Positions 6,430 through 33,394 of a stretch of DNA of 64,000 nt are shown piece after piece. The position numbers were made by a program, and so were the translations under genes. Source of the DNA: a virus; IMG/VR virus record IMGVR_UViG_3300029442_000002, positions 1-64,000 of that record; one strand, 5' to 3'. The notes below the pieces were generated by a model. That model was given only the letters and a program-made list of their open reading frames with translations. It was not told the origin of the DNA and searched no databases. Each line of letters starts with the position of its first letter. Within the stretch, counting starts at the first letter, position 1.

Positions 6430-9400
6430 ATGGCACTTGTTTCAGCAGGCGTTCAAGTATCTATTGTAGATGAAAGTACTTATTCGATTTCTACACTTGG
6501 TACAACACCTCTGGTTGTAGTTGCAACTTCCGAAAATAAATCTAATCCATCAGGTAATTTAGCCGCATATACAACAGCAGCTAATGCTGGAGAAGTATTT
6601 TTGGTTACTTCACAGAGAGAATTAGTAACAAATTACGGACAACCAGAATTTTTAGTTAGCAATGGTACTCCAGTACATGGATATGAATTAAATGAATATG
6701 GTTTATATGCAGCTTATAGCGCACTAGGTGTTAGTAATGCAGCCTATGTATTAAGAGCTGATTTAGATTTAAACCAACTTTCAAGCAGCTTGGTTCAACC
6801 ATCAGGACCCCCAGCTAATGCTACTTTATGGCTAGACACTGTTAATTCTAAATTTGGTATGTTAGAATGGAATAGTTCAACTGGTTTTAGAGAGATTAAC
6901 ACTTCTAGAATTAGTGGTGATGGAAAATTATTCGTAATTACATCAACAAATCAGATTAGTGGTAATGAACCTGTTACAAATATTGGTAAACAAGGTGACT
7001 ACGCTATTGATGCAACAAATATTGATAACCCTGCATTTTATAAAAATGCTAGTGGATGGGTAGAAGTTGGATCTGCAGATTGGGAAATGAGTTGGCCAAC
7101 AGTATCAGGTACTTCAACATATACACATTCTTCAACTAACGTAACTTTTACAATTACAGGAGCTTCATCTGGTTCTCACGTAATTACTGTTCGAAACGGT
7201 AATACAGTATCAAATATTGCGGCTACTATTAACACAGCGGCTATTACAGGTATTACAGCTAGTGTAACTACAGCTGGTTACTTACAAATATTTTCAAATA
7301 GCGTTGCTTCTCCAATTACTTTATCAAGTTCTTCATCTATTTTAACAAGTCTTGGTATTCCAAATGGTGGTGGATCTTTCAGCTGTCCAAAATACATAGC
7401 AAGCAAGCATACACAAGTTCCGGCTGGTGGTGCATGGTCAGCTAATGGTTCAGATCCTAGACCAACAGGTAGTATTTGGTTCAAAACTACTAGCCCAAAC
7501 AACGGAGCTAGTATTAAAGTAAATAGATATTCATCTGCTACACAAACTTGGACTAGTTTGACAACTCCAATTTTCCCTAGCGATGTAGCTATTATTAATG
7601 ATCCAGTATATGGAGATCCAAGTGGCGGTGGATTAGGTATTCCTGCATCTTCAACATATATTCAATCATCTATTACAACAGATGTAACAACTTCTCAACC
7701 ATTATATACTTTTAAGTTATTTGATCGTGTTGCTGGAGTATCAAGCGTTACTGGTTCAACAGTAAGTCCTACTTTCGTTAACGCAAGTAACGTTATACCT
7801 AAGACTTATACATTTACATTAAGTGCAAGTACATTACAATCTGGATCATGGGCAATGAGTTCACCTACAACAGTTAGTTTTACTGTTGGAAATAGTGCAA
7901 CTGCTAATGCAGGCGTAATTATTACTGCTATTAATAATGCTGGACTTGTAAACGTCAACGCAGAATTAACACCAGCCAACAAAGTTAAAATTACACATGC
8001 TGCTGGTGGCGTTATGGAACTACATGATGGTGCTAATACTCCATTAACAGTGTCTGGTATTACTATTTCAAGTACAGGTGCTCGTGAGAGTGATGTTAAT
8101 GCTGGTAATATTTGGATAAGCAACTGGAGACCAGCACTTTATACTGTTGGTAGTTCTCAACCAACAGCTGATCCGCTAAATGGTACTTATTGGTACTATA
8201 ATAACACTGTAGAATATGATATTCTTATTAACAATGGTGCTGCATGGAAAGGATATTTACTTGGTGGAACAGATGCCAGGGGATATACACTTTCTTTAAC
8301 AGATCCAGCAGGTCCAATTGTTAGTGCTAGTATGCCTACTTCAAATAGTGCTGGAGATCCTTTAGTTGGTGGCGATCTTTGGGTTAATACAAGTGATTTT
8401 GAAAATTTCCCAAGAATTTATCGCTACAATGATATTTCAACAACATGGATTTTAATTGATAACACAGACCATACTTCAGAAAATGGTATTATATTTGCTG
8501 ATGCTAGATGGGATGGATCAGGAACAGTAGATCCAATCACTGATCCTCTACCAACAATTGCAAGCTTACTAAACAGTAACTATGTAGATAGTGATTGTCC
8601 AAGTTATGCTTTATATCCAAAAGGAACATTACTTTTCAACACTCGCAGATCAGGAATGAACGTAAAGCAATTCGCAGTTAATTATTTTCCAGCAGGCGGA
8701 CCAGCAGTAACAAGTACTTGGGTTTCCGCTAGTGGTAATGATTCAAACGGTGTTGCATATCTTGGACGTAGAGCCCAACGTGCTATTGTTGTATCCAAAA
8801 TGGCTTCAGCAGTTCTTGCTAATACACAACTATTAGAAGAAACACGCGACTTCAACATTATTTGCGCTCCTGGATATCCAGAGTTAGGTAATGTATTAAC
8901 TCAATTAAATGTTAATAGAAAAGAAACAGCTTTTGTCTTACTTGATACACCAATGAGATTAGCTGCTACTAGCAATAATTTATTAGCATATGGTAGTAAT
9001 TTAGGTGTAGCTGATGGAACAGATGCTGCGGCCGGTGATGCTCTAATTAATTACGAGTATTCAGCAGCTTATTATCCAAGTGGTTATACACAGAGTTTGG
9101 CAGGTGACTTCGTAGTTGTTCCTCCAACACACATGGCTTTACGTACAATAATTAGAAGTGATCAAAAGAGTTATCCGTGGTTTGCACCAGCTGGAACACG
9201 TCGTGGTACAGTTGATAATGTAAGTGCAATTGGTTATATTGACGGACAAACTGGATCATTTAAGAGTATTGGTGTAAATAACGGATTACGCGATGCATTG
9301 TATCAAGGTAAAGTTAATCCAATTACATTCTTAACTAATTCAGGTATTACAATTTACGGCCAAAAGACAAGATCAGCAAATACTAGTGCATTAGACAGAG

Positions 9401-9714
9401 TTAATGTTGCTAGATTGATCGTATACTTGAGACGTAAGGTTGATTTGATTGCTAGAGATTTCTTGTTTGAACAAAACGATACAGTAACAAGAAAAGAAAT
9501 CAAAAATGCAATTGAAAAAGAACTTATCAGCATTAAATCACAACGTGGAATTTATGACTACAGCGTAATTTGTGACCTCTCAAATAATTCTACAAATACT
9601 ATAGACAGAAATGAACTATATGTAGACGTAGCAATTGAACCAGAAAAATCTGTAGAATTCATTTATATTCCTGTGCGTATTAAGAACACAGGTGATATTC
9701 AAGCTGGCTTATAA
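6430..9714 (+). CDS. 18: Tail sheath protein, T4 gp18-like, enlarged
   Basis: The N terminus (MALVSAGVQVSIVDES) and the last 200 residues are typical of gp18. The C-terminal part includes DRVNVARLIVYLRRKVD, FLFEQNDTVTRKEI and a VAIEPEKSVEFIYIPVRI strand. The sheath contracts to drive the tube through the envelope. At 1094 aa it is much longer than T4 gp18 (659 aa). The extra length is a central run of repeated beta-rich pieces (residues about 110-700) with recurring WYYNN/WLDT-type strands, probably surface domains. A GGAGAT site and CTAAATA element precede it, and a hairpin terminator follows. Confidence 0.9.
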   Translation: MALVSAGVQVSIVDESTYSISTLGTTPLVVVATSENKSNPSGNLAAYTTAANAGEVFLVTSQRELVTNYGQPEFLVSNGTPVHGYELNEYGLYAAYSALGVSNAAYVLRADLDLNQLSSSLVQPSGPPANATLWLDTVNSKFGMLEWNSSTGFREINTSRISGDGKLFVITSTNQISGNEPVTNIGKQGDYAIDATNIDNPAFYKNASGWVEVGSADWEMSWPTVSGTSTYTHSSTNVTFTITGASSGSHVITVRNGNTVSNIAATINTAAITGITASVTTAGYLQIFSNSVASPITLSSSSSILTSLGIPNGGGSFSCPKYIASKHTQVPAGGAWSANGSDPRPTGSIWFKTTSPNNGASIKVNRYSSATQTWTSLTTPIFPSDVAIINDPVYGDPSGGGLGIPASSTYIQSSITTDVTTSQPLYTFKLFDRVAGVSSVTGSTVSPTFVNASNVIPKTYTFTLSASTLQSGSWAMSSPTTVSFTVGNSATANAGVIITAINNAGLVNVNAELTPANKVKITHAAGGVMELHDGANTPLTVSGITISSTGARESDVNAGNIWISNWRPALYTVGSSQPTADPLNGTYWYYNNTVEYDILINNGAAWKGYLLGGTDARGYTLSLTDPAGPIVSASMPTSNSAGDPLVGGDLWVNTSDFENFPRIYRYNDISTTWILIDNTDHTSENGIIFADARWDGSGTVDPITDPLPTIASLLNSNYVDSDCPSYALYPKGTLLFNTRRSGMNVKQFAVNYFPAGGPAVTSTWVSASGNDSNGVAYLGRRAQRAIVVSKMASAVLANTQLLEETRDFNIICAPGYPELGNVLTQLNVNRKETAFVLLDTPMRLAATSNNLLAYGSNLGVADGTDAAAGDALINYEYSAAYYPSGYTQSLAGDFVVVPPTHMALRTIIRSDQKSYPWFAPAGTRRGTVDNVSAIGYIDGQTGSFKSIGVNNGLRDALYQGKVNPITFLTNSGITIYGQKTRSANTSALDRVNVARLIVYLRRKVDLIARDFLFEQNDTVTRKEIKNAIEKELISIKSQRGIYDYSVICDLSNNSTNTIDRNELYVDVAIEPEKSVEFIYIPVRIKNTGDIQAGL

Positions 9715-9736
9715 TTAGACCTAAGTAGTAGAACAC

Positions 9737-9764
9737 AATGGCGCATATTAAGTTATGCGCCATT
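9737..9764 (+). terminator. Hairpin terminator after the sheath gene
   Basis: AATGGCGCAT and ATGCGCCATT form a stem around a short loop and are followed by a T-rich run. The inverted copy of the same 28 bases lies at 11355-11382, so the two copies bracket the endonuclease gene. The endonuclease stop codon lies inside this hairpin. Confidence 0.85.
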
Positions 9765-11291
9765 TTTATTTTCATTGGTCCACAACCATTTAGCATGACC
9801 ACAATCCCAAATTCGATCATATCCTTGTAATTGTCTATTTTCCCATTCAGTTAAAGATTGGTCATCATCTTTGTTTTTACGTAATGAATACCGATGAATC
9901 CTGGTCATGTCTGGCAATTGAAAATACCAATAACCAGGTACAGTATTTTCTACAAATGTAAAGCCAAGATGTTTATATGAATTACCAGTAAACCATCTAA
10001 GATCTGCATAACTTATTACTTTTATTGGATTAATATTTTTAATAAAATGAGCAAATAACCTACTTGCACCACCTATTACTTTGATATCTAGAACACCAGC
10101 CATCCGTTGTATTTCCCAAGTATCTTTATTACCACGGCTTATATTTGAATTTGAAAAAGTCATTACATATACTAATTTGTTCTGACAAAATAAGCCATAT
10201 TTGATATTAGATTTTGCATAACCGTGTATATGATTTTCTTCTAGAAATAATCTTGCATCTACAGTAGAAATTTCTTTTATAATACATTTTCTAGCAAATA
10301 TCTTATCTGTTATTAGTCCAAGCTTATTTTTAAGCATTGCTTTAACTAATTCTTGTTTATTAGACCATTCGTCTTCAAAAATAGTAATTAGGTCAATACC
10401 TTTTTTATTACATTGATCACATTTATATCGGTGATATTCTTGGCCCTTACCCATAGTATCACTATGCCAATATAACCCACAATATTCAATAGCTATTTTC
10501 TTATTTGGTAAAAACACATCTAATTCAAGTGGCGAAATTTGCATTCTGTCACCAGAAACAGTTACTGGTTCTAAATTTAATATAAATTTAAATACTTCTA
10601 ATTCGGCTTTACTTTTATAAATATTATCTATTGGTCTACATATTGGACAAAAATCTATTCTAAACTTATCTGGTTTTGTTGCTTGGGCTGTTCTGGAAAA
10701 ACTAGTATTACAAATTAAGCAATTACAAAAATAAACTTTAAAATTATCATGACCATATAAATTGATATTATGCAATAATAGAAATGCTTTGTATTTTTCA
10801 AATGTATTTAATTTTCTTTCTTCCCATTTTTCTTTTGATGACGAAACTATTTTATTCTTAGATTCTTGAGAATGATGTTTTCCTTTCATGCTACTAACAA
10901 TTGGACCTTTTGCTCGTTTTGTAGCATATGCTTTTTTAGATCGTTCTTTTAGCTCATCTTGATTATTAATAGCATATTCGTGATTTTTTTGACTTAGAAC
11001 TTTCTTCTTTTCATCAGAACATATTGATCCTCGTTTAATTTCACCACGTTGAAATCGCTCTTCTCGTAGCGTAATAGCAATTCTCATATTTTCTAATGCT
11101 ACTGGATCAGTAAGTTTTTTTCCTTTATTATGAGCTGTTTTTCCAAGTTTTAATGCTATTGATTCCTCGCTCCACAATGAACCATATAATGCCGAATATT
11201 CTTTTCCAGACATATTATGTTCGGAATTTAAATGTTGGTACGGAATAATCTTCGGGAATTTTTTATTACATAATTTACATATAATGGACAT
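9753..11291 (-). CDS. EDxHD (Vsr-like) homing endonuclease
   Basis: The N terminus has a zinc-finger-like CKLCNKKF...HLNSEH pattern. Residues 95-160 are basic with a NUMOD3-like GKHHSQESKNKI motif. The nuclease core holds SKAELEVFKF, LELDVFLP, IEYCGLYWHSD and LITIFEDEW, which fits the EDxHD family related to Vsr and I-Bth0305I. A C-terminal domain (about residues 330-512) with FLEENHIHGY and VISYADLRWFTG may bind DNA. It is inserted on the opposite strand between sheath and tube genes, as free-standing phage homing endonucleases often are. Confidence 0.8.
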   Translation of the reverse strand: MSIICKLCNKKFPKIIPYQHLNSEHNMSGKEYSALYGSLWSEESIALKLGKTAHNKGKKLTDPVALENMRIAITLREERFQRGEIKRGSICSDEKKKVLSQKNHEYAINNQDELKERSKKAYATKRAKGPIVSSMKGKHHSQESKNKIVSSSKEKWEERKLNTFEKYKAFLLLHNINLYGHDNFKVYFCNCLICNTSFSRTAQATKPDKFRIDFCPICRPIDNIYKSKAELEVFKFILNLEPVTVSGDRMQISPLELDVFLPNKKIAIEYCGLYWHSDTMGKGQEYHRYKCDQCNKKGIDLITIFEDEWSNKQELVKAMLKNKLGLITDKIFARKCIIKEISTVDARLFLEENHIHGYAKSNIKYGLFCQNKLVYVMTFSNSNISRGNKDTWEIQRMAGVLDIKVIGGASRLFAHFIKNINPIKVISYADLRWFTGNSYKHLGFTFVENTVPGYWYFQLPDMTRIHRYSLRKNKDDDQSLTEWENRQLQGYDRIWDCGHAKWLWTNENKNGA

Positions 11292-17003: not shown

Positions 17004-17717
17004 ATGATATTTAGCGAGTTTCTAGATAATCCACAAACAAAAAGATATTATGAAATAATTGAAAATGCCAGATTATTTCCACTTCCAACAGACACTTATA
17101 CCGAAAAACATCATATCTTGCCAAATAGTTTTTATAAAGCAGGTTTGGTTACTGGCAATCCATATGATCCAATTAATATAGTTATATTAACAGGACGTGA
17201 ACATTTTATATGCCACCAATTATTAACCGAAATGTTACCTATTGGCCCTGGTTATTATAAAATGTCACATGCATTTTTTGGCATGTGTCGTACTGGATCA
17301 AAAAATATTGGTCGATATATTCCAACTCCTGAAGAATACGAATTAGCTAAAATTTTAAGTGCTATTGCTATGTCAAAATTACATAAAAATAAACTAAAAT
17401 CTGCGGAAGCAAAAGCTAATATGTCAAAAGCACTTAAAGGCAAACTAAAATCTGCAGAAACAAAAGCTAATATGTCAAAAGCATCTAAAGGAAAATCAAA
17501 ATCTGCTGAACATTGTGCTAATATGTCAAAACCAAGATCTGCTGAAGCAAAAGCTAATATGTCAAAAGCACATTTAGGTCATAAACATTCAGATGAAACT
17601 AAAGCCAAAATGTCAAAACCAAAATCTTCTAAGTCTATATCAAAGGGAATTGCAACCCGAAAAGCAAACAGAGAAGCAAAATTAAAATCTGATGATTTCA
17701 AAAATAATTTGTTCTAG
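17004..17717 (+). CDS. HNH homing endonuclease with NUMOD3-type repeats
   Basis: The catalytic part holds EKHHILPNSF, DPINIVILTGREHFICHQLL, a typical HNH core. Residues 125-210 carry at least five copies of a SAEAKANMSKA-type unit, the NUMOD3 DNA-binding module. The protein has 237 aa. It lies among head genes and has its own late promoters, as phage homing endonucleases often do. It begins MIFSEFLDN, like its neighbours, perhaps a fused N-terminal tag. Confidence 0.85.
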   Translation: MIFSEFLDNPQTKRYYEIIENARLFPLPTDTYTEKHHILPNSFYKAGLVTGNPYDPINIVILTGREHFICHQLLTEMLPIGPGYYKMSHAFFGMCRTGSKNIGRYIPTPEEYELAKILSAIAMSKLHKNKLKSAEAKANMSKALKGKLKSAETKANMSKASKGKSKSAEHCANMSKPRSAEAKANMSKAHLGHKHSDETKAKMSKPKSSKSISKGIATRKANREAKLKSDDFKNNLF

Positions 17718-21366: not shown

Positions 21367-21863
21367 TGCAGATTAATGAACTATTGGGTAAGAATATATC
21401 TGATGAATCATATGACTTCAAAGAAATAAATGATGATACCTATAGATTTGAAACTGATTCCAATAGAATATACGATGTTATATTTTCTTTTTTCGAAGGA
21501 CCACATATAGTTGAAGTTACATTTGGTCTTAAAGTTAAAGATGCGTCATATTATAATTATGGTGTTGCATCATTAAATGATATGAAAGAAACTATTAAAG
21601 TATTTACAACAGTGATTAATATCTGTAAATTATACTGTGAACAAAAACATCCATTGGTTTGGGTATTTGCTGCCAAAGAACAATCTAGAATAAAGTTATA
21701 TCAAAGACTTTCTTTGACTTTAGCAAAAACATTTAATTTAAAATATAAAATTGAAACTATGTATGGTGAAAAGATGTTTATATTGTGGGATAAAACGCCT
21801 GATGCGCAGAGATTAGCCCAAGGATATATCAATCGAAATCTTGGTTGGGAACCTGATGTTTGA
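21366..21863 (+). CDS. Hypothetical protein, GNAT-fold-like phage family
   Basis: The protein has 165 aa. Pattern VEVTFGLKV, IKVFTTVINI, VWVFAAKEQSRIKLYQRL occurs in a phage family I remember with a degenerate acetyltransferase-like fold. The MQINELLG start again resembles the head-region N termini. Its last 51 bases overlap the minus-strand HNH gene. Confidence 0.55.
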   Translation: MQINELLGKNISDESYDFKEINDDTYRFETDSNRIYDVIFSFFEGPHIVEVTFGLKVKDASYYNYGVASLNDMKETIKVFTTVINICKLYCEQKHPLVWVFAAKEQSRIKLYQRLSLTLAKTFNLKYKIETMYGEKMFILWDKTPDAQRLAQGYINRNLGWEPDV

Positions 21864-22391
21864 AGCAGTCTTTCCACCAACCCGTAAGTAAGGTATCCAC
21901 GATGCATGAGATACTATAATTGGCAACTCGAGACGTTTTGCTGAGAGTGAGTAGTAGTCTGGGACCCAAGGTTTAAATAACGGAGTCCAATGTTGATGTC
22001 CTTTACGTAAATTACAAGTTTTACAAGCTGAAATACAATTACTCCAGGTGCTTCGCCCGCCTTCACATTTTGGGATAACATGATCCACACTTAAATCTTT
22101 ATGTGAGAATACTTCACCACAGTATCCACACTTATATCCATCTCTAATATATAGAAGTTGTCTGCTAAATCTAACCTTACCTTTTCTAAAATTAAACTTT
22201 TCTTTTGTTATAGCAACTGAAGGTAATTGTATAGATAACTTTGGAGATCTAATCCATCTATCTTCATACAAGTGTATAGGAGTAATTTTTTCAAGGCAAT
22301 ACAATCTCATGCAATCTTGCCATGAAATAACACTCAAAGGCAAGAAATCTGTTGGCTCTCCTGAATTAGTTAACAACAAGGTGTCTGACAT
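21813..22391 (-). CDS. HNH endonuclease
   Basis: Start MSDTLLLTNSGEP at 22391. The N-terminal half has the FLPLSVISWQDCMRLYCLEK pattern common to one HNH family. The HNH core follows: CGYCGEVF, DLSVDHVIPKCEGGRSTWSN, and CISACKTCNLRKG with two zinc CxxC pairs. The protein has 192 aa. It lies divergently to the terminase gene, overlaps its neighbour, and is likely a free-standing homing or packaging-associated nuclease. Confidence 0.85.
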   Translation of the reverse strand: MSDTLLLTNSGEPTDFLPLSVISWQDCMRLYCLEKITPIHLYEDRWIRSPKLSIQLPSVAITKEKFNFRKGKVRFSRQLLYIRDGYKCGYCGEVFSHKDLSVDHVIPKCEGGRSTWSNCISACKTCNLRKGHQHWTPLFKPWVPDYYSLSAKRLELPIIVSHASWIPYLRVGGKTASNIRFPTKISIDISLG

Positions 22392-22432
22392 ATTAATACT
22401 TATCCTACAAATAATCAGGTAAATATTATTAC

Positions 22433-22822
22433 ATGTCTCGCCCATTAGATACCGTATTAATTAAAAAACCAAATAGAGTACAGAGTTATACTGAAGATCA
22501 AATTGAAGAATTGAATAAATGTCTTGATCCAGTTACTGGCCCATTATATTTTTTAAGTAATTTTTTTTACATACAGCATCCTACTCGTGGCAAGTTACTT
22601 TATGATCCATATATTTTTCAAGAACGATTAGTTGATACTATCCATAATAATATATTTTCAATTGCGCTCTGCCCGAGACAAGTGGGCAAGTGTTTAGAGA
22701 AAAGTATAAATATAACTATAAGGAATAAAAAAACAGGAAAAATTTATGAAATTCCTATAGGAAAATATTATGAATGGAACAAAGATAAAAGAATTGATAT
22801 TAGCAACTACGAACGAAAATAA
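22433..22822 (+). CDS. 17: Large terminase part 1: extein 1 fused to N-intein 1
   Basis: Residues 1-86 are the TerL N terminus and end in CPRQVGK, the front of the Walker A motif. From C87 (22691) a 43-residue N-intein begins (CLEKSINITIRN, then TGKIYEIPIGKYYEW) and the frame stops at TAA. Block-A-like Cys1 and the exact break inside the P-loop identify a split intein. The partner half starts at 23744 in another polypeptide. Alone this piece cannot bind ATP. Confidence 0.85.
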   Translation: MSRPLDTVLIKKPNRVQSYTEDQIEELNKCLDPVTGPLYFLSNFFYIQHPTRGKLLYDPYIFQERLVDTIHNNIFSIALCPRQVGKCLEKSINITIRNKKTGKIYEIPIGKYYEWNKDKRIDISNYERK

Positions 22823-23768
22823 AACATATTATAATTGGTGTAAAAAGCATGAATGTGAAAAAAGAGGTAAAGGAACAAATACTAGATGTGAAACTTGCTT
22901 AATAGAAAAGTCACATTTGAAATTTACTAATGTAAACATAGATGAATGGGTTGAATGTAAAGTATGTGGAATGAGACTAAAAGAACTTGGAGTTCACTTG
23001 ATTAATGTTCATAATATTAATACCAAAGAATATAGAAAAGAGGGCAATTATACAAAATGTAAAATAGCAAGAGAACGGATCAAAGGCGAAAAAAATCCTG
23101 GATTTAATCATAATGGCCGAATGTCAGCATGGAGTAAAAACTTTAAAAATGGGTACGATGAAGGTAAACATATTCAGGCCAAAGAAAATCATAAAAAGTA
23201 TATGTCTGAGAATAAAGATAAATCGATGTTTAGAATCGATTATTGGATTAAACAAGCAGAAGGAGACACAGAAGAAGCACAAAAATTATATAAGAAATCA
23301 CAAACAAGAAGTTTAGAATGGTTTATAAATAAATTTGGTCTAATCGAAGGACCAATTCGACACCAATCCAAAACTGAAAAGTGGATGAAAAGTTTTAAAA
23401 AATGTAATTTTTCTAAAATATCACAAATATTATTTGATGAAATATACAATAATTTAAACGATAAAGATGAAATTTATTATGCAACTTTAGACAGAGAAGA
23501 TATGAAGAAATATTTTAATAAAGAATATATTTTTAAAACGAATAGCTCATATATACGGCCTGATTTTATTTGTTTATCTAGAAAGAAGATTATAGAATTT
23601 GATGGAACATACTGGCATTCTCCACGTAAAGCTAATATTCTAAGAGACCAATTCAGAGACGATAAAATTTTAGAAAAAGGATTTCAAGTATTACATATTT
23701 TAGAATACGATTTTGAAAAAGACAAAGAAGGAATCATACAAAAATGCCTGAATTTTCTGAACAAGTAG
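22770..23768 (+). CDS. Free-standing EDxHD-type homing endonuclease inside split intein 1
   Basis: ATG at 22770 follows ATAGGA and overlaps N-intein 1 by 53 nt in another frame. The 332 aa hold two Cys pairs near the N terminus (CKKHEC, CETC), a CKVCGMRLKELGVHLINVH finger, and NUMOD-like basic helices. The nuclease core has IRPDFICLSRKKIIEFDGTY, a WHS turn and RDDKILEKGFQVLHI, matching EDxHD/Vsr-like enzymes. Its end overlaps the C-intein start by 25 nt. This is the fractured-gene layout known from marine metagenomes. Confidence 0.85.
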   Translation: MNGTKIKELILATTNENKTYYNWCKKHECEKRGKGTNTRCETCLIEKSHLKFTNVNIDEWVECKVCGMRLKELGVHLINVHNINTKEYRKEGNYTKCKIARERIKGEKNPGFNHNGRMSAWSKNFKNGYDEGKHIQAKENHKKYMSENKDKSMFRIDYWIKQAEGDTEEAQKLYKKSQTRSLEWFINKFGLIEGPIRHQSKTEKWMKSFKKCNFSKISQILFDEIYNNLNDKDEIYYATLDREDMKKYFNKEYIFKTNSSYIRPDFICLSRKKIIEFDGTYWHSPRKANILRDQFRDDKILEKGFQVLHILEYDFEKDKEGIIQKCLNFLNK

Positions 23769-24814
23769 AACGAAAATTTATAGATCAAATACAAATCGAT
23801 AATGAATGGGAAATTGAAACCGATACTGGGTGGGAACCCATTACTTCAATTAATAAAACAGTCAAGTATCAAATATATGAACTGTATCTTGAAAATGGAA
23901 TGTTTCTAAAATGTGCAGATACACATATTGTATTTGATGAAAATTTTAATGAAGTATATGTAAAAGATCTTAAAATTACTAATACAGTTATAACTAAAGA
24001 TGGACCAGTAAATGTTAAACAACTTATAAAAACAGATAATTTTGATAATATGTTTGATTTGACTGTCAATAGTAATAATCATAGATTTTATACAAATGAT
24101 ATATTAAGTCATAATACAATTACAGTCAGTGGATATTTACTTTGGTATGCTATGTTTGTTCCTGATTCAACTATTTTAATAGCTGCTCATAAGTATATTG
24201 GAGCTCAGGAAATTATGCAACGTATTAGATATGCATATGAAAGCGTCCCGGATCATATACGTGCTGGTTCAACTAGTTATAATAAAGGTAGTTTAGAATT
24301 TGATAATGGGTCAAGAATTATGGCTCAAACAACTACGCCAACAACAGGTCGTGGAACTTCAATTTCAATATTATACTGCGATGAAATGGCATTCGTACCT
24401 GGAACTATAGCAAAAGAATTTTGGACAAGTATCAGTCCTGCACTCAGCACAGGTGGTAAAGCAATTATTACTAGCACTCCAAATAGTGATGAAGATCAAT
24501 TTGCTATGATTTGGAAGCAAGCTAATAAATGCATAGATTCATTTGGAAATAAGACTGAATTGGGTATAAATGGATTCAAAGCATTTAGATCATATTGGGA
24601 AGAGCACCCAGATAGAGACGAAAAGTGGAAACAAACTGAAATTGGCAGAATAGGAATTGATCGTTTTGAACGAGAACACAATTGCTGCAACGGTAATACA
24701 AAAATTGAGCTGATAGATAATATAGGCAAAGAATTAGTTATTTCAATGGAAGAGTTTTTTAATATTATAGATAAAAATAAATCTATCGAAGAAAAAAATC
24801 ATATGAGGTACTAA
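23744..24814 (+). CDS. 17: Large terminase part 2: C-intein 1, extein 2, N-intein 2
   Basis: Residues 1-124 are C-intein 1: EIETDTGWEPITSI, CADTHIVF (block B His), FDLTV and HRFYTNDILSHN. T125 (24116) starts extein 2, completing Walker A as GK-T. The 189-aa extein holds ILIAAHK, the SILYCDEMAF Walker B with E, and TSTPNS. After FEREHN, C314 (24683) begins a 43-residue N-intein 2 (CCNGNTKIELIDNIG) ending at TAA. ATG 23744 follows AAGAAGGA. It should splice at both ends. Confidence 0.85.
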   Translation: MPEFSEQVERKFIDQIQIDNEWEIETDTGWEPITSINKTVKYQIYELYLENGMFLKCADTHIVFDENFNEVYVKDLKITNTVITKDGPVNVKQLIKTDNFDNMFDLTVNSNNHRFYTNDILSHNTITVSGYLLWYAMFVPDSTILIAAHKYIGAQEIMQRIRYAYESVPDHIRAGSTSYNKGSLEFDNGSRIMAQTTTPTTGRGTSISILYCDEMAFVPGTIAKEFWTSISPALSTGGKAIITSTPNSDEDQFAMIWKQANKCIDSFGNKTELGINGFKAFRSYWEEHPDRDEKWKQTEIGRIGIDRFEREHNCCNGNTKIELIDNIGKELVISMEEFFNIIDKNKSIEEKNHMRY

Positions 24815-24815
24815 C

Positions 24816-25898
24816 ATGGGAGTAATATTCAAAAAAAATGTAAATCAGTACAAAGTATCGACACCAAATGGATATAAAATGTTCTCAGGAATTAGTTATA
24901 TGGGAGATAAAGAAATATATCATTGTAAATTTGAAGATAACATTTGGCTTGAAAGTACTATCGATCATAAAATTTATATTTCTAATACAGAATATAAAAC
25001 AATCAATGAATTGGAAATTGGTGATTGTATATTAACTTCTGTTGGTAAAAAGAAATTATTAGAAAAAATTGATACAAACACAATTCAAAAAGTATATGAT
25101 CTAATAGACGTTGAAGATGGTCATAGATATTATACCAATGGAGTTCTATCATCAAATTGCTCTTTTATTACAGCAGATGAGACTTTAATTAGTAATATGA
25201 AAATTCCTGAACTTAAAAGTTCAGAGCCAATATTCATGCAAGGCCAAGTTCGATGGTATTTGACTCCAACTAAAGGTAATACTTACATTCTAGGGCTTGA
25301 TCCAAGTTTAGGTACTGGTGGAGATATGGCGGCTATTCAAGTATTTGAAAGCCCAAGTATGAAACAAGCTGCTGAATGGCAACACAATAAAACACCAATA
25401 CAAAAACAAATACAAGTTTTAAAAGAAATGACAAAGTATCTAAGTGATATAGTTGGGAATAACAATATTTATTATAGCGTTGAAAATAATACATTAGGTG
25501 AAGCTGCATTAGTTAGCATAGCTGATATTGGTGAAGAAAATATTCCAGGTATATTTCTAAGTGAGCCATCAAAGTTAGGAACATCTAGGGCATACAGAAA
25601 AGGTTTTACAACCACTAATAAATCTAAATTGGCAGCTTGTGCTAAATTAAAAAGTTTGATTGAAAACGACAAGATAACTATTAATAGTAAAAATTTAATT
25701 TCTGAACTCAAAACTTTCGTAAGTTCTGGAGCTAGCTTTTCAGCTAAATCTGGTGAAACTGATGACTTAATAATGGCTACTATTTTAGTTGTGAGAATGG
25801 CAACAGTTTTGAAACAATATGATCCAGCATTAGATAATCAATTTAGTGAGAAGAATGAAGAAGCACAACCAATGCCTTTCATAATGGTATTTAGATAA
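24816..25898 (+). CDS. 17: Large terminase part 3: C-intein 2 fused to nuclease extein
   Basis: Starts 1 nt after the preceding stop; a GAGG site lies in the end of part 2. Residues 1-114 are a C-intein of the AceL-TerL type: VSTPNGYKMFSGI, LESTIDHKIYI, NELEIGDCIL and HRYYTNGVLSSN, with Ser in place of the usual penultimate His. C115 (25158) begins the 246-aa nuclease domain: ILGLDPSLGTGGDMAAI (catalytic D), SVENNTLGEAAL and GETDDLIMA. Joined exteins total 521 aa, a normal gp17 length. Confidence 0.87.
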   Translation: MGVIFKKNVNQYKVSTPNGYKMFSGISYMGDKEIYHCKFEDNIWLESTIDHKIYISNTEYKTINELEIGDCILTSVGKKKLLEKIDTNTIQKVYDLIDVEDGHRYYTNGVLSSNCSFITADETLISNMKIPELKSSEPIFMQGQVRWYLTPTKGNTYILGLDPSLGTGGDMAAIQVFESPSMKQAAEWQHNKTPIQKQIQVLKEMTKYLSDIVGNNNIYYSVENNTLGEAALVSIADIGEENIPGIFLSEPSKLGTSRAYRKGFTTTNKSKLAACAKLKSLIENDKITINSKNLISELKTFVSSGASFSAKSGETDDLIMATILVVRMATVLKQYDPALDNQFSEKNEEAQPMPFIMVFR

Positions 25899-27772: not shown

Positions 27773-27798
27773 GTTTTTATCATTAAATCCGCTATAAT
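27773..27798 (+). promoter_or_regulatory. Promoter next to TnpB element 1
   Basis: TTAGGT and TATAAT (27793-27798) at 18-nt spacing. The same arrangement occurs upstream of gp32 beyond the element, so the element is flanked by two related promoters. Confidence 0.45.
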
Positions 27799-27814
27799 AA
27801 TTATATAGACTAAA

Positions 27815-29050
27815 TGAACTACTATGCCGATTGAGGCATAGATTCCTGCTTCATAGATGTCAACGGGACATCTCCACAGGCTTCGATTTCTGTAGTTCCT
27901 ACAGTATTTTTGAACAACGAATTGTCAATAATTAATGGACCCCAAAAGGCAATATTTTGTGCGGCATTTAGGTCTCGGTCAAGAGTTGCTTTGCAATTTG
28001 AACATATCCAAATTCTTATACCCAGACCAAATCCAGTATGTTTATGATTACATACATGACATGTTTTGGTAGATGCAGCCCATTGGCTAACTTGACTGAA
28101 ATGCTTGCCATATAATTGGCACTTGTATTTGAGCATATTTAGAAACATGCTCCATCCCTGATCACTTATTGCTCGGTTCATTGCTCTATTTTTCCTCTTC
28201 AACAGATCCTTGGTTTTCAGATCTTCACAACAAATCAAATCATATATATTAACTAATCTCCTACTTGTCTGATGCAAAAAATTCAATCTTTGATTACGAA
28301 TTTTGCGATGTAATTTTGCTACTTTGATACGTTCTTTGTTTCTGTTATTTGACCCAATTTTTCTATGTGATAATTTTCGTTGTTTCCACTTCAACTTATT
28401 GAGTGATTGCTTAAGAAATTTTGGACTTGGAATTATCTCTTGGTCACTTGTTACTGCAAATGCTTTGATTCCAAGATCTATACCAACGCAATTATCTCGA
28501 TCAATTAGAACTTGTTGTTGATCTTCAACTTCACACACAACTGATATGAACCATCTGTCTACATCACATGTAACTGTAACTGACGAATGATTAATTGGCA
28601 ATGATCTGTCAAATATTATATTAATCCACCCAATTTTTGGTAGATAAACTTTCTTATCTGTAAATTTGACATGTTGAACATATCTAATTCCTGATTCGCT
28701 GCCTTTCTTTTTGAATTTTGGATAAGCTCTTATCTTAACATGTTTCAATGCGCCATCTAGTTCCTTCAATGATTGTTGTAGAACTTGAGCAGTGGTTTCT
28801 TTTAACCATGGATAAGCAATTTTCAATTCTGGTAATTGCATAGCCATATCATAATACCAAATAAATTTCTTAGTTGATGCATACTCAATGTTATTTTGAT
28901 TAAGCATATAATTCCAAATCCATCTAGTTGAGCCCATCGATTTACGAAGTTGAGTTATTTGATTGTCATTTGGATATATTCGATATTTGTATCTTAGTTT
29001 CATATGTATAAATACTTCTGGGTGCATAAACTGTTTTCATATGCAGTTTT
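27815..29050 (-). mobile_element. TnpB-only IS200/IS605-type element 1
   Basis: The right end is set by comparison with element 2: both share a hairpin followed by TAGTTCA on the minus strand, after which they diverge (boundary 27815). The hairpin here is CTATGCC/GGCATAG and contains the tnpB stop. The left end is unclear; a candidate AAACTG/CAGTTT hairpin lies just past the start. No TnpA is present. Confidence 0.6.
27822..29003 (-). CDS. tnpB: TnpB, RNA-guided nuclease of IS605 family
   Basis: ATG at 29003 gives 393 aa. The RuvC triad is visible: D176 in GIDLGIKAF, E260 in CCEDLKTKD and D344 in DRDLNAAQN. Zinc Cys pairs are at 315/318 and 334/337. TnpB proteins cut DNA guided by an RNA from the element's right end. 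From about residue 160 to the end it is nearly identical to the copy at 32098, while the N-terminal part is only about 40% alike. All catalytic residues are intact. Confidence 0.9.
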   Translation of the reverse strand: MKLRYKYRIYPNDNQITQLRKSMGSTRWIWNYMLNQNNIEYASTKKFIWYYDMAMQLPELKIAYPWLKETTAQVLQQSLKELDGALKHVKIRAYPKFKKKGSESGIRYVQHVKFTDKKVYLPKIGWINIIFDRSLPINHSSVTVTCDVDRWFISVVCEVEDQQQVLIDRDNCVGIDLGIKAFAVTSDQEIIPSPKFLKQSLNKLKWKQRKLSHRKIGSNNRNKERIKVAKLHRKIRNQRLNFLHQTSRRLVNIYDLICCEDLKTKDLLKRKNRAMNRAISDQGWSMFLNMLKYKCQLYGKHFSQVSQWAASTKTCHVCNHKHTGFGLGIRIWICSNCKATLDRDLNAAQNIAFWGPLIIDNSLFKNTVGTTEIEACGDVPLTSMKQESMPQSA

Positions 29051-29110
29051 GAAGTAACATACGTCGAATATATTACTTCCACCCACCATACTTATTTATG
29101 CCAAATAGAT

Positions 29111-29156
29111 TAGGTTTTAAAGAAAATCCATGTTATAATTAATTAAATGATAAATA
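29111..29156 (+). promoter_or_regulatory. Early plus late promoter of gp32
   Basis: TTAGGT (29111 region) and TATAAT at 29134-29139 with 18-nt spacing are followed by TGATAAATA at 29148-29156. Dual early and late control fits the need for SSB through infection. The ribosome site AAAGGAATAT precedes the ATG. Confidence 0.5.
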
Positions 29157-29210
29157 CATTTGCTACAGAAATTATCTTTGTAGACAGTGAAATAAAGGAA
29201 TATAATTATT

Positions 29211-30179
29211 ATGGCGACACTCGCAGAAATCCGCGCTAAACTTCAAGCGCAAGACAATAAATCAGACAAAAAAGGTTTTGGAGATAAGCAACTTTATCCG
29301 CATTGGAATATCAATGAGAATGAATCGTGCTTACTAAGGTTTTTACCTGACAAGAATACAAAGAATTCATTCTTTTGGGTAGAACGTGCATTAATTAATC
29401 TTTCATTCCCATCAGTAAAAGGTGCTTCTGAAGCAAAGACAGCATATGTAAAAGTTCCATGTATGGAAATGTGGGGAGAAACTTGCCCTGTACTAACAGA
29501 AGTTCGTCCTTGGTACAAGGATGCTTCATTAAAGGAACAAGCTGGTAAGTATTGGAAGAAGCGTACTTATTTGATGCAAGGGTTTGTACGTGAGAATCCA
29601 ATTGAGGAAGAAACACCTGAGAATCTAGTTAGACGGTTTATCATCAGCCCGCAGCTTTTTTCACTTATTAAGGCGGCACTACTTGATCCTGAATTAGAAG
29701 AATTACCAACAGATTTTAATCACGGATTAGATTTCCGTATTAATAAGACAGCTGGTAAGGGTGGTTATTCTGATTACAATACAAGCAAATGGTCCAGAAA
29801 AGAATCAGCACTAACTGATAAAGAACGTGCAGCTATTGAACAATATGGATTATTTGATTTATCGGATGGTTTACCTAAGAAACCAAGTGACAAAGAAGTA
29901 AAGATCATTAAAGAAATGTTCGAAGCTTCTGTAAATGGCGATATGTATGATCCCGAAAAGTGGGGAGAGTATTTTAAGCCAGGTGGGTCATATGTTGCAG
30001 AAACAGTAGATACATCGTCTGCTAAGGCAACAACTCACACAACTCACACAACTCAAGCAGCACCTGTTCAAGAAGACAGTGTTGCACCTGTGGTAACTCC
30101 TACTACAGCACCTAAGTCAACTCAAGCAACTGATATTCTTAAGATGATTAAAGAACGTCAAGCAAACGCAAAGAAGTAA
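29211..30179 (+). CDS. 32: Single-stranded DNA-binding protein, gp32
   Basis: The protein has 322 aa (T4 gp32 has 301). A basic N terminus (LAEIRAKLQAQ) for cooperativity is followed by the core: LYPHWNINENESCLLRFLPD, FFWVERALINLSFPSV, the zinc region with VPCMEMWGETCPV and a YLMQGFVREN strand, then FDLSDGLPKKP. The C-terminal tail is flexible but rich in Thr rather than strongly acidic. gp32 coats ssDNA in replication and recombination and is followed by a terminator, then uvsX. Confidence 0.92.
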   Translation: MATLAEIRAKLQAQDNKSDKKGFGDKQLYPHWNINENESCLLRFLPDKNTKNSFFWVERALINLSFPSVKGASEAKTAYVKVPCMEMWGETCPVLTEVRPWYKDASLKEQAGKYWKKRTYLMQGFVRENPIEEETPENLVRRFIISPQLFSLIKAALLDPELEELPTDFNHGLDFRINKTAGKGGYSDYNTSKWSRKESALTDKERAAIEQYGLFDLSDGLPKKPSDKEVKIIKEMFEASVNGDMYDPEKWGEYFKPGGSYVAETVDTSSAKATTHTTHTTQAAPVQEDSVAPVVTPTTAPKSTQATDILKMIKERQANAKK

Positions 30180-30195
30180 TTAATAGCAAACATAG

Positions 30196-30224
30196 AATGG
30201 CGTATGAAACTTATACGCCATTTT
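30196..30224 (+). terminator. Hairpin terminator after gp32
   Basis: AATGGCGTAT and ATACGCCATT form a 10-bp stem followed by TTTT. It has the same design as the sheath-gene terminator (AATGGCGCAT). Confidence 0.85.
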
Positions 30225-30244
30225 CATATTAGGAGAATATAACT

Positions 30245-31351
30245 ATGGCTGGAAAGCCTTTTGGTGTAGATAGATTTAGACGTGAATTAACAAAAAGTAT
30301 TGAAGGCCTTGGTATTGGTTTTCATGATCCAACAGATTGGATTTCTACTGGTAGTTTTGTATTAAATGAATTAATTTCTGGACACTTTGATAAAGGTGTG
30401 CCACTTGGTAAAGTAACAATCTTTGCAGGAAGACCAGCATCAGGAAAAAGTCTAATTGTTTCAGGTAATATTATCAAAAATGCTCAAGCACAAAATATTT
30501 TTGTGATCATGATTGATACAGAAAATGCATTAGATGAAGATTGGCTTAAAAAGTTAGATGTAGATACAAGTGAAGGTAAATTACTTAAACTTAGTATGTC
30601 AATGATTGACGATGTTGCTAAAACTATCAGTACTTTTATGACAGACTATAAAGCAACTAGCGAAGAAGACAGACCAAAAATTTTATTTGTTGTTGATAGT
30701 TTAGGTATGTTAATGACGCCAACAGACGTTAAACAGTTTGAATCTGGCGACATGAAGGGCGATATGGGTAGAAAAGCCAAAGCATTAAAGGCACTAGTTA
30801 CTAACTGTGTTAATATGTTTGGTGCTTATAATGTAGGAATGGTATGTACAAATCATACTTATCCAAGCCAAGATCCATATAGTCCTGATGATATTGTATC
30901 AGGAGGAAATGGATTTTTATTTGCAAGTTCGATTGTAGTTGCTACAAAACCACTTAAATTAAAAGAAGATGCTGAAGGTAATAAAGTACCCGATGTACTT
31001 GGAATCAGAGTTGGTTGTAAGGTAATGAAGACACGTTATAATAAGCCATTTGAAACATGTGAAATTAAAATTCCATGGGTTGGTGGTCTTGATCCATATT
31101 CGGGATTATTCGAATTATTTGAAAAGAAGAACCTAATCGAGAAAGAAGGCAACAGATATAAATATATTGATTTACAAGGTGATGAACATAAATATTATCG
31201 AAAAGAGTACCTAGTAAATACAGATTCAATTTTAGATTTGATTATGGGTGAGTATGCTGAGAAGAAAAAGCTTCTATCACCTACACAAGAAGACATAGTT
31301 GGAATTGATGAGTCTGTAATTGAAGAAAGCGAACCAACTGACGATGAGTAG
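30245..31351 (+). CDS. uvsX: UvsX RecA-like recombinase
   Basis: The protein has 368 aa. Walker A is GRPASGKS at residues 62-69 and Walker B ILFVVDSLGML near 145. GGNGFLFASSIVVATKP and RVGCKVMKTRYNKPFE follow the UvsX pattern. The C terminus is acidic. UvsX forms filaments for strand exchange and replication start. A TAGGAGAATATAACT ribosome site precedes it. It is followed by two small genes and uvsY in one run. Confidence 0.93.
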   Translation: MAGKPFGVDRFRRELTKSIEGLGIGFHDPTDWISTGSFVLNELISGHFDKGVPLGKVTIFAGRPASGKSLIVSGNIIKNAQAQNIFVIMIDTENALDEDWLKKLDVDTSEGKLLKLSMSMIDDVAKTISTFMTDYKATSEEDRPKILFVVDSLGMLMTPTDVKQFESGDMKGDMGRKAKALKALVTNCVNMFGAYNVGMVCTNHTYPSQDPYSPDDIVSGGNGFLFASSIVVATKPLKLKEDAEGNKVPDVLGIRVGCKVMKTRYNKPFETCEIKIPWVGGLDPYSGLFELFEKKNLIEKEGNRYKYIDLQGDEHKYYRKEYLVNTDSILDLIMGEYAEKKKLLSPTQEDIVGIDESVIEESEPTDDE

Positions 31352-31364
31352 GAGATTAACTTAA

Positions 31365-31610
31365 ATGACGGTGGACCCAATTGAAATTGCAGCTGAGTTA
31401 TGGCGCAATGTTTTAGAATATGTTCCAATGCGAGACAGAGATGCCGCAGCTGAACAGTTTATAGTAGCATTGCGCGGCTTGAATTTTTCTGATGATGAAC
31501 TTGATTCTTTAGCAGAACATGACCGGTATATTAATACGGCATTGATTCAAGATAATGAAGAAAACGATTTTTCAAACGATGATTTTGACGATTTAAACGA
31601 CAACGAATAA
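31365..31610 (+). CDS. Small acidic protein between uvsX and uvsY
   Basis: The protein has 81 aa: helical front half (PIEIAAELWRNVLEYVPMRD, AAAEQFIVALRGL) and a strongly acidic Asp/Asn end. I recall a similar gene between uvsX and uvsY in other T4-like phages. A role in recombination is guessed from position. Confidence 0.6.
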   Translation: MTVDPIEIAAELWRNVLEYVPMRDRDAAAEQFIVALRGLNFSDDELDSLAEHDRYINTALIQDNEENDFSNDDFDDLNDNE

Positions 31611-31611
31611 A

Positions 31612-32064
31612 ATGTGGCTATCACGTATAACAAGTGATCTAGGAAATATACCAGACTTTTTAGATCACTTTAGGGTTGAGCTTGTTAACGCTCAAATTGA
31701 GGTTGCTATAAAAGGCAACCTTGAAAGAAATTTATCAACTTTGCCTGGTATAACAGAATATCGATTTGGACAGCTACAAACTGTTGAAAGTGTATTAAAT
31801 TATTTAAATATTAAACTCAAGAAACTTAAAAATAAACATTTTAGACTGTACCTTGAAAAGTATGCTAAGGCATTAACTAGTAGAGATGCTGAAAAATATT
31901 CAGATGGTGAAGACGATGTTTGCGACTTAGAAGAAGTTATTAATCAGGTTGCTTTACTACGTAACCAATATTTAGGAATTATCAAAGCATTAGAAACAAA
32001 AAATTGGATGCTTGGTCACATAACAAAACTTCGTTGTGTTGGTATTGAAGCAGTAGAATTATAG
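31612..32064 (+). CDS. uvsY: UvsY-like recombination mediator
   Basis: The protein has 150 aa (T4 UvsY has 137), mainly helical. KKLKNKHFRLYLEKYAKAL, SRDAEKYSDGEDDV, VALLRNQYLGIIKALETKNW and GHITKLRCVG match the UvsY pattern. UvsY helps load UvsX on gp32-coated DNA. It lies 1 nt after the small acidic gene. Confidence 0.8.
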   Translation: MWLSRITSDLGNIPDFLDHFRVELVNAQIEVAIKGNLERNLSTLPGITEYRFGQLQTVESVLNYLNIKLKKLKNKHFRLYLEKYAKALTSRDAEKYSDGEDDVCDLEEVINQVALLRNQYLGIIKALETKNWMLGHITKLRCVGIEAVEL

Positions 32065-32065
32065 G

Positions 32066-32094
32066 TTGATTCTTTTTTGAAACTCTTATATACT
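32066..32094 (+). promoter_or_regulatory. Early promoter abutting TnpB element 2
   Basis: TTGATT and TATACT with 17-nt spacing. Element 2 begins at the last base of the -10 box, so the promoter is now cut off from the small gene family it probably served. Confidence 0.55.
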
Positions 32095-33394
32095 GAACTA
32101 CCGCATCCCTGAAGGGAGTGCGGCTTCCTGCTTCATAGATATCAACGGGACATCTCCACAGGCTTCGATTTCTGTAGTTCCTACAGTATTTTTGAACAAT
32201 GATGAGTCAATTGTCAACTGACCCCAAAAAGCAATATTTTGTGCGGCATTTAGATCTCGGTCAAGAATTGCCTTGCAATTTGGACAAGTCCAAATTCTGA
32301 TGCCCAGACCAAATCCCTGATGTTTATGACCACAGGCATTGCAGGTCTTGGTAGATGCAGCCCACTTGTCAATTTGGTCAAAATGCTTGCCATATAATTG
32401 GCATTTGTATTTCAAAAAGCCCAAAAACATTGACCATCCCTGATCACTTATTGCTCGGTTCATTGCAGTATTTTTCTTCGACATAAGATCTTTGGTTTTC
32501 AGATCTTCGGTACAAATCAAATCATATGTATTAACTAATCTCCTACTTGTTTGGTGCAAAAAGTTCAATCTTTGATTGCGTATTTTGCGGTGTAATTTTG
32601 CTACTCGGATACGTTCTTTGTTTCTATTTTTAGATCCAATTTTTCTATGTGATAATTTTCTTTGTTTCCACTTTAATTTCGCCAGTGATCTCTTTAGAAA
32701 TTTTGGACTTGGAATTATCTCCTGATCACTTGTTACCACGAATGCTTTGATACCAAGATCAATTCCGATACAATTATCGCGGTCAATTAAAACTTGTTGC
32801 TGATCTTCAATCTCACACAAACAACTCACGTACCAGCAATCAACATCTTTTGTTATTGATACTGATCTCAAATCGCTTGGCAATGCTCGATGATATATCC
32901 ATTTGATATTGCCAATCTTTGGTATTTTGATATGTGATTCACTTGTTTTGATGTGATTATTCGTCTGATCAATTTTAATTTGGCCATTGCTTACGCCTTT
33001 TTTCTTAAATCGAGGAAATCCGATCTTGCTTTTCTTGATTGCATGTAATGCTGTGTCAATCGAAAATGCAATATTTTGTAATGCATGAGCGGGTACTTCA
33101 CCAAGCCAGTTATATTGTTTTTTAAGATCTGGTATTTGTTTTTTGAGATCATATCGCCAAATAAATTTCTTATCAATTTGGTATTGAGTTATATTTTGAT
33201 CAAGAAAATTATTCCAAAGCCATCTAGTTGAACCTTCCCATTGATTGAGAATTTCAATTTGTGCTTTGTTTGGTAATAATTTATATTTGTATCCCAGCAG
33301 CATATTAATATTTATGCTATAATAAATATATGAAGCAAATTGGTCTACACGGCAGTTCATCCGCACCCCTAAAGGGGCTGCGGGCTTGCTGCCG
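32094..33394 (-). mobile_element. TnpB-only IS200/IS605-type element 2
   Basis: Right end: a CCGCA/TGCGG hairpin that holds the tnpB stop, then TAGTTCA at 32094-32100. Left end: a two-level hairpin near 33351-33394, where CCGCA-CCCC pairs with GGGG-TGCGG inside GGCAG/CTGCC. The inner hairpin resembles the right-end one. TnpA is absent. Confidence 0.65.
32098..33303 (-). CDS. tnpB: TnpB, second copy
   Basis: ATG at 33303 gives 401 aa. RuvC motifs GIDLGIKAF, CTEDLKTKD and DRDLNAAQN and zinc pairs CNAC/CPNC are intact. Residues from about 165 on are close to 90% the same as the copy at 27822, while the first 160 residues differ strongly (KSKIGFPRFKKKG here). The mosaic suggests gene conversion or recombination between related elements. 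Confidence 0.9.
   Translation of the reverse strand: MLLGYKYKLLPNKAQIEILNQWEGSTRWLWNNFLDQNITQYQIDKKFIWRYDLKKQIPDLKKQYNWLGEVPAHALQNIAFSIDTALHAIKKSKIGFPRFKKKGVSNGQIKIDQTNNHIKTSESHIKIPKIGNIKWIYHRALPSDLRSVSITKDVDCWYVSCLCEIEDQQQVLIDRDNCIGIDLGIKAFVVTSDQEIIPSPKFLKRSLAKLKWKQRKLSHRKIGSKNRNKERIRVAKLHRKIRNQRLNFLHQTSRRLVNTYDLICTEDLKTKDLMSKKNTAMNRAISDQGWSMFLGFLKYKCQLYGKHFDQIDKWAASTKTCNACGHKHQGFGLGIRIWTCPNCKAILDRDLNAAQNIAFWGQLTIDSSLFKNTVGTTEIEACGDVPLISMKQEAALPSGMR

What the first reader, a model, noticed from the sequence alone, without database searches (positions are those of the whole stretch)
27822..33303. Two TnpB elements with identical back halves and divergent front halves
From about residue 160 the proteins are near 90% alike; before it about 40%. 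The shared part holds RuvC, zinc finger and the RNA-coding 3' end; the divergent part is the wedge/REC side that reads the target motif. Gene conversion of the 3' half, or swapping of target specificity, would explain this.
Basis: seen in the sequence. Interest (0 to 1): 0.7.

Follow-up and report, generated by a model that had tools for sequence, protein, structure and literature searches.

The report
Phage TnpB with swapped targeting half
Two RNA-guided DNA-cutting genes (TnpB) in a large phage share nearly the same cutting half but have very different target-reading halves, joined at the border between protein domains; recombination best explains this, and it may let such selfish genes change which DNA sites they can cut.

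Summary
Elements A (27822-29003) and B (32098-33303), both minus strand, are intact IS200/IS605-type TnpB genes in a large T4-like phage. Protein identity is about 44% up to A residue ~155, then 87%, with one breakpoint at the WED/RuvC domain border. A third copy, C, from a related phage makes this interpretable: B and C are evenly similar along the gene (nt 0.87, 0.84), while A matches both only in the back (0.83-0.86). In the front, A-C synonymous sites are saturated, so the cause is recombination, not uneven selection. Among 9,430 TnpB pairs, A-C and A-B are the most discordant. The shared block ends just before the terminal right-end hairpin, where A differs again, suggesting an internal tract. 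Recent conversion between the two neighbours is not supported: A's back is no closer to B than to C. The divergent half holds the TAM-contacting residues, and A lacks the T-N-N loop that B, C and ISDra2 keep, so a changed target motif is likely but untested. No parent of A's front was found. Recombination between tnpB genes was suggested before; this is a new variant of a known kind.

The parts
27822..29003 (-). Element A tnpB (393 aa); RuvC D176/E260/D344 and zinc cysteines C315 C318 C334 C337 present
   Evidence: ORF; Pfam OrfB_IS605, Cas12f1-like_TNB, HTH_OrfB_IS605; invariant residues; predicted fold best match TnpB 8h1j
28539..29003 (-). Divergent front of A: REC + WED, short TAM loop GIRYVQHVKF
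27843..28538 (-). Shared back block of A: RuvC, TNB zinc finger, C-terminal tail and most of the guide-RNA scaffold
   Evidence: 85% nt to B over 27843-28542, 87.6% to C; breakpoint
27822..27841 (-). Terminal right-end hairpin of A (CTATGCC..GGCATAG), unlike that of B/C; presumed equivalent of ISDra2 omega-RNA stem 4
   Evidence: stem 4 is bound by WED per PMC10097598
27814..27821 (-). TAGTTCAT: inferred end of A's RNA scaffold, just before the guide
   Evidence: TAGTTCA conserved in A, B, C; boundary inferred
27794..27813 (-). Inferred guide of A (TTAGTCTATATAATTATTAT)
   Evidence: position after TAGTTCAT; inference
29019..29085 (-). Left-end folded structure of A (TGGGTG..CACCCA outer stem around two hairpins)
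   Evidence: DNA fold z = -2.9
29088..29095 (-). Two candidate TAM positions of A (ATAAG or GTAT); unresolved
   Evidence: spacing to the outer stem only; inference
32098..33303 (-). Element B tnpB (401 aa); RuvC D182/E266/D350 present
32821..33303 (-). Divergent front of B: REC + WED, with T-N-N TAM loop DQTNNHIK
32125..32820 (-). Shared back block of B
32101..32123 (-). Terminal right-end hairpin of B (CCGCACTCCC..GGGATGCGG)
32073..32092 (-). Inferred guide of B (TATATAAGAGTTTCAAAAAA)
   Evidence: position after TAGTTCAG; inference
33350..33394 (-). Left-end folded structure of B (CGGCAG..CTGCCG around an inner hairpin)
   Evidence: DNA fold z = -4.6
33400..33404 (-). Candidate TAM of B, TTTAG (element C has TTTAT at the same spacing)
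   Evidence: inference

Best explanation
A and B are solitary IS200/IS605-type TnpB elements of a large T4-like phage, and A is a natural chimera. Shown by sequence: an internal tract of about 0.7 kb in A, from the WED/RuvC border to just before the terminal right-end hairpin, belongs to the B/C lineage, while A's REC-WED half, left end and terminal hairpin do not. Inferred: homologous recombination or gene conversion in an infected cell between an A-like element and some B/C-like copy (not the B now next to it, and not recently) placed this tract in A. RuvC then stayed with the RNA stems it binds, and WED/REC with the RNA stem and the target-adjacent motif (TAM) they read. Likely consequence, inferred: A and B use nearly the same nuclease and RNA core but read different TAMs, each cutting the empty version of its own insertion site so that repair copies the element in (RNA-guided homing).
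For: Single breakpoint at codon column 161, chi2 125/180, 0/300 permutations; none for B-C. Informative sites: front B=C 167 vs A=C 15 and A=B 29; back 48/60/40. Same-residue codons of A-C are identical at 0.48 in the front, the random expectation, and 0.83 in the back. Most discordant of 9,430 pairs. Tree path A-C 1.61 front vs 0.13 back; B-C 0.21 and 0.13. Break at the WED/RuvC border. Terminal hairpin of A differs while the adjoining sequence is nearly identical. TAM loops: A IRYV-Q like enteric insQ and Nostoc, B/C T-N-N like ISDra2. Catalytic residues intact. No TnpA or serine recombinase in the phage records.
Against: No element with A's front and another back was found, so one parent is hypothetical. 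In the front tree A is still nearest to B/C (path 1.6; next 2.0), so the front may come from a distant relative in the same family rather than a separate subtype. A-B front synonymous identity is a little above random (0.61 vs 0.48). A's TAM and empty site are not determined, homing is untested, and only three members of the lineage are known.
Confidence: 0.65

Rival explanations
1. Front swap in the opposite sense: A was a whole B/C-type element whose left end, REC and WED were replaced from a distant phage TnpB by one crossover at the WED/RuvC border.
For: Same breakpoint; A's left end also differs from B/C.
Against: A's terminal right-end hairpin differs from B/C although the adjoining sequence is nearly identical, which needs a second event or many compensatory changes.
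Confidence: 0.22
2. Recent or ongoing gene conversion between the two co-resident copies in this phage keeps their 3' halves alike.
For: The genes lie 4 kb apart in one genome; internal tract with A-specific ends.
Against: A's back is 0.83 identical to B but 0.86 to C in another phage, with star-like sites; recent conversion would give near identity.
Confidence: 0.07
3. No recombination: the fronts evolved fast under diversifying selection while the back is held by catalysis and RNA coding.
For: WED/REC is in general somewhat less conserved than RuvC between TnpBs.
Against: A-C front synonymous sites are saturated while the back is not; B-C is even; the RNA-coding part covers only the last ~115 nt of the ~0.7 kb tract; no other pair of 9,430 is as discordant.
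Confidence: 0.04
4. Assembly chimera.
For: Metagenomic sequence.
Against: Identical in three IMG/VR records, one of 242 kb, with 6-11 kb compared at 100%.
Confidence: 0.01

Closest known systems
ISDra2 TnpB (PDB 8h1j, 8bf8, 8exa)
   Same: Same fold and domain order (Foldseek E 2e-28, TM 0.71-0.76), D/E/D and CCCC residues, RNA at the 3' end
   Different: About 30% identical; TAM contacts Y52, S56, K76, F77 and the T123-N124 loop are changed in A and partly in B/C
Enteric insQ-type IS605 TnpB (phage RCS47, Salmonella plasmids)
   Same: Short RYPQ TAM loop and contact set Y,A,S,Q,Q resemble A's Y,A,A,Q,Q; left end laid out as motif, a few nt, outer stem
   Different: 35% identical in the front; inserts after TTAT (P1 empty site), which is not seen at A
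Recombining IS200/IS605 tnpB of Halanaerobium hydrogeniformans (PMC7290912)
   Same: Recombination between tnpB copies inferred
   Different: There it concerns shared inserts within tnpB in one bacterium; here a domain-border exchange separates the TAM-reading half from the nuclease half, in a phage

Membership tests
TnpB (IS200/IS605 RNA-guided endonuclease) | OrfB_IS605 and TNB profiles, TnpB fold | tested here: met
   Pfam; NCBIfam NF040570 308/302 bits vs cut-off 100; Foldseek
TnpB (IS200/IS605 RNA-guided endonuclease) | RuvC D-E-D and CCCC zinc finger | tested here: met
   Invariant in alignments
TnpB (IS200/IS605 RNA-guided endonuclease) | Folded right-end RNA overlapping the 3' end of tnpB | tested here: met
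   RNA folds z = -3.7, -3.0, -5.1 for A, B, C; transcription not tested
TnpB (IS200/IS605 RNA-guided endonuclease) | RNA-guided cleavage next to a TAM | not testable with these tools
   Needs a TAM depletion assay
Complete (autonomous) IS200/IS605 element | TnpA (Y1) transposase in the element | tested here: not met
   No PF01797 match in G000-G003; the phage records may be incomplete
TldR (nuclease-dead phage TnpB regulator) | Disrupted RuvC active site | tested here: not met
   D176/E260/D344 and D182/E266/D350 present
Phage homing element | Empty-site cleavage and copying-in | not testable with these tools
   No empty site of A or B with alignable flanks was found

The most novel reading that the evidence does not exclude
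TnpB is naturally modular at the WED/RuvC border: REC-WED together with the terminal RNA stem forms an exchangeable TAM-reading cassette, so phage elements can change target motif in one recombination event while keeping nuclease and RNA core.
Probability: 0.35. Interest if true: 0.65.

Novelty: new variant of a known kind. Interest (0 to 1): 0.45.

Why it matters
It is a natural experiment on TnpB modularity: two enzymes with nearly the same nuclease and RNA core but different target-reading halves. If A and B are both active with different TAMs, exchange at this border is a route tested by evolution for retargeting compact RNA-guided nucleases, and it shows how such selfish genes could reach new insertion sites.

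Tried and rejected
Searches for an A-front parent in viral contigs, phages, plasmids and bacterial genomes: nothing above ~40%. A right-end RNA pattern found only the same phage. Empty sites for A and B through the UvsX neighbourhood of 80 relatives: none carries a TnpB, and at ~65% UvsX identity the flanks were not usable. Empty site of C through the neighbouring ATP-grasp gene: the homologue ends near the insertion, no exact boundary. Second breakpoint inside the front (codons 1-60 less diverged): not significant (59/500). Patches between B and C: one run of 28 identical codons in the front, p 0.002, not pursued. No solo ends elsewhere in the 242-kb record by a 19-nt right-end pattern.

Full report
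What is there. The window lies in a virus record (G000, 66 kb). The same stretch recurs at 100% in two other IMG/VR records, one of 242 kb. The phage is a large T4-like one; its UvsX recombinase is most like those of jumbo phages such as Atu_ph07, CBB and GAP32. Element A (27822-29003) and element B (32098-33303) are both on the minus strand and flank an SSB-like gene and the UvsX gene. Each codes an intact TnpB with Pfam OrfB_IS605, TNB and HTH_OrfB profiles, the D/E/D triad and four zinc cysteines. A predicted model of A (mean pLDDT 80) matches ISDra2 TnpB best. No TnpA or serine recombinase was found in the phage records, so these look like solitary TnpB elements.

The mosaic. A and B are 43-45% identical up to A residue ~155 and 87% after it. 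A third copy, C, sits at a different site in a related phage contig (L003). B and C are evenly similar along the gene (nt 0.87 and 0.84). A agrees with them only in the back (0.83 to B, 0.86 to C), not in the front (0.56, 0.53). In the front 167 sites unite B and C against A, versus 15 and 29 for the other pairings; in the back the numbers are 48, 60 and 40, a star. A maximum chi-square scan puts one breakpoint at codon column 161 for A-B and A-C (0 of 300 permutations) and none for B-C. Synonymous codons are random between A and C in the front (0.48 observed, 0.48 expected) and far from random in the back (0.83). Slow versus fast protein evolution therefore cannot be the cause.

How unusual. 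In 144 TnpBs, mostly cyanobacterial paralogues, giving 9,430 pairs, front and back identities track each other. Among 148 other pairs with back identity 0.80-0.97 no front is below 0.61. A-C (0.42/0.89) and A-B (0.45/0.87) are the two most discordant pairs of all. The sample is not a random draw of TnpBs, so rarity in general is not established.

Where the border lies. ISDra2 TnpB has WED at 1-12 and 117-176, REC at 13-116 and RuvC from 185 (PMC10097598). The A/B switch aligns to about ISDra2 residue 176; in the model of A it falls at the last WED strand, 150-158, before RuvC begins at 172. The other end of the shared tract is also sharp. A, B and C are nearly identical through GAYATCTATGAAGCAGGAA, then A's terminal hairpin (CTATGCC/GGCATAG) departs from the B/C type (CCGCA../..TGCGG), and all end in TAGTTCA. 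In ISDra2, stem 4 is bound by WED, stems 1-3 mainly by RuvC, and the pseudoknot by both. So the exchanged block appears to be RuvC plus the RNA stems RuvC holds, and what stayed with A is REC-WED plus the stem WED holds. Equating the terminal hairpin with stem 4 is an inference by homology.

Which direction. Because the left and right ends of A are both A-specific, an internal tract placed into A is the simplest reading; a front swap with later change of the hairpin remains possible. The donor was not today's B: A's back is no closer to B than to C.

Target motif. ISDra2 reads TTGAT with Y52, S56, K76, F77, Q80 and the T123-N124 loop. B and C keep the T-N-N loop (DQTNNHIK). A has a four-residue-shorter loop (GIRYVQHVKF), like enteric insQ (AFRYPQ) and Nostoc (SIQYPQ) proteins. 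For the insQ type the motif could be read from empty sites: phage RCS47 against P1, and a Salmonella plasmid against its element-free relative, both give insertion after TTAT. By its layout (motif, a few bases, outer stem) B and C would have TTTAG and TTTAT, which suits a T-N-N loop. For A two positions (ATAAG, GTAT) are possible and I cannot choose. A changed TAM is therefore likely but not shown.

How it probably works. By the established scheme for TnpB, each element's RNA should carry the 3' flank as guide, and the protein should cut the element-free allele next to its TAM, with recombination copying the element in. The phage carries other homing-type genes as well (seen by eye). This step is inferred; no usable empty site for A or B was found.

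What is new. Recombination between tnpB copies has been proposed in Halanaerobium (PMC7290912). In the held library I found no report of a natural TnpB whose TAM-reading half and nuclease half have separate histories joined at the domain border; that library lacks most subscription journals. I rate it a new variant of a known kind.

Noticed in passing
22433-25898: The large terminase gene is broken into pieces by what look like two split inteins; an endonuclease-like ORF (22770-23768) sits between the halves of the first.
   Followed up: no
L003:8264-10367 (minus strand): In the related phage the UvsX recombinase gene is likewise broken by what looks like a split intein, with an endonuclease-like ORF (8793-9971) between the halves.
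   Followed up: no
33424-36100; also L003:6397-7550: An array of small paralogous ORFs (MIKIH...FFxLKFGDVS) lies next to a conserved 150-aa ORF in both phages; element B appears to sit inside a degenerate member.
   Followed up: partly
9753-11291, 17004-17717, 21813-22445: Several further homing-endonuclease-like ORFs, judged by eye.
   Followed up: no
about 32900-33120 (B front, compared with C): B and C share a run of 28 identical codons in the front half (permutation p 0.002), hinting at further patchwise exchange.
   Followed up: partly
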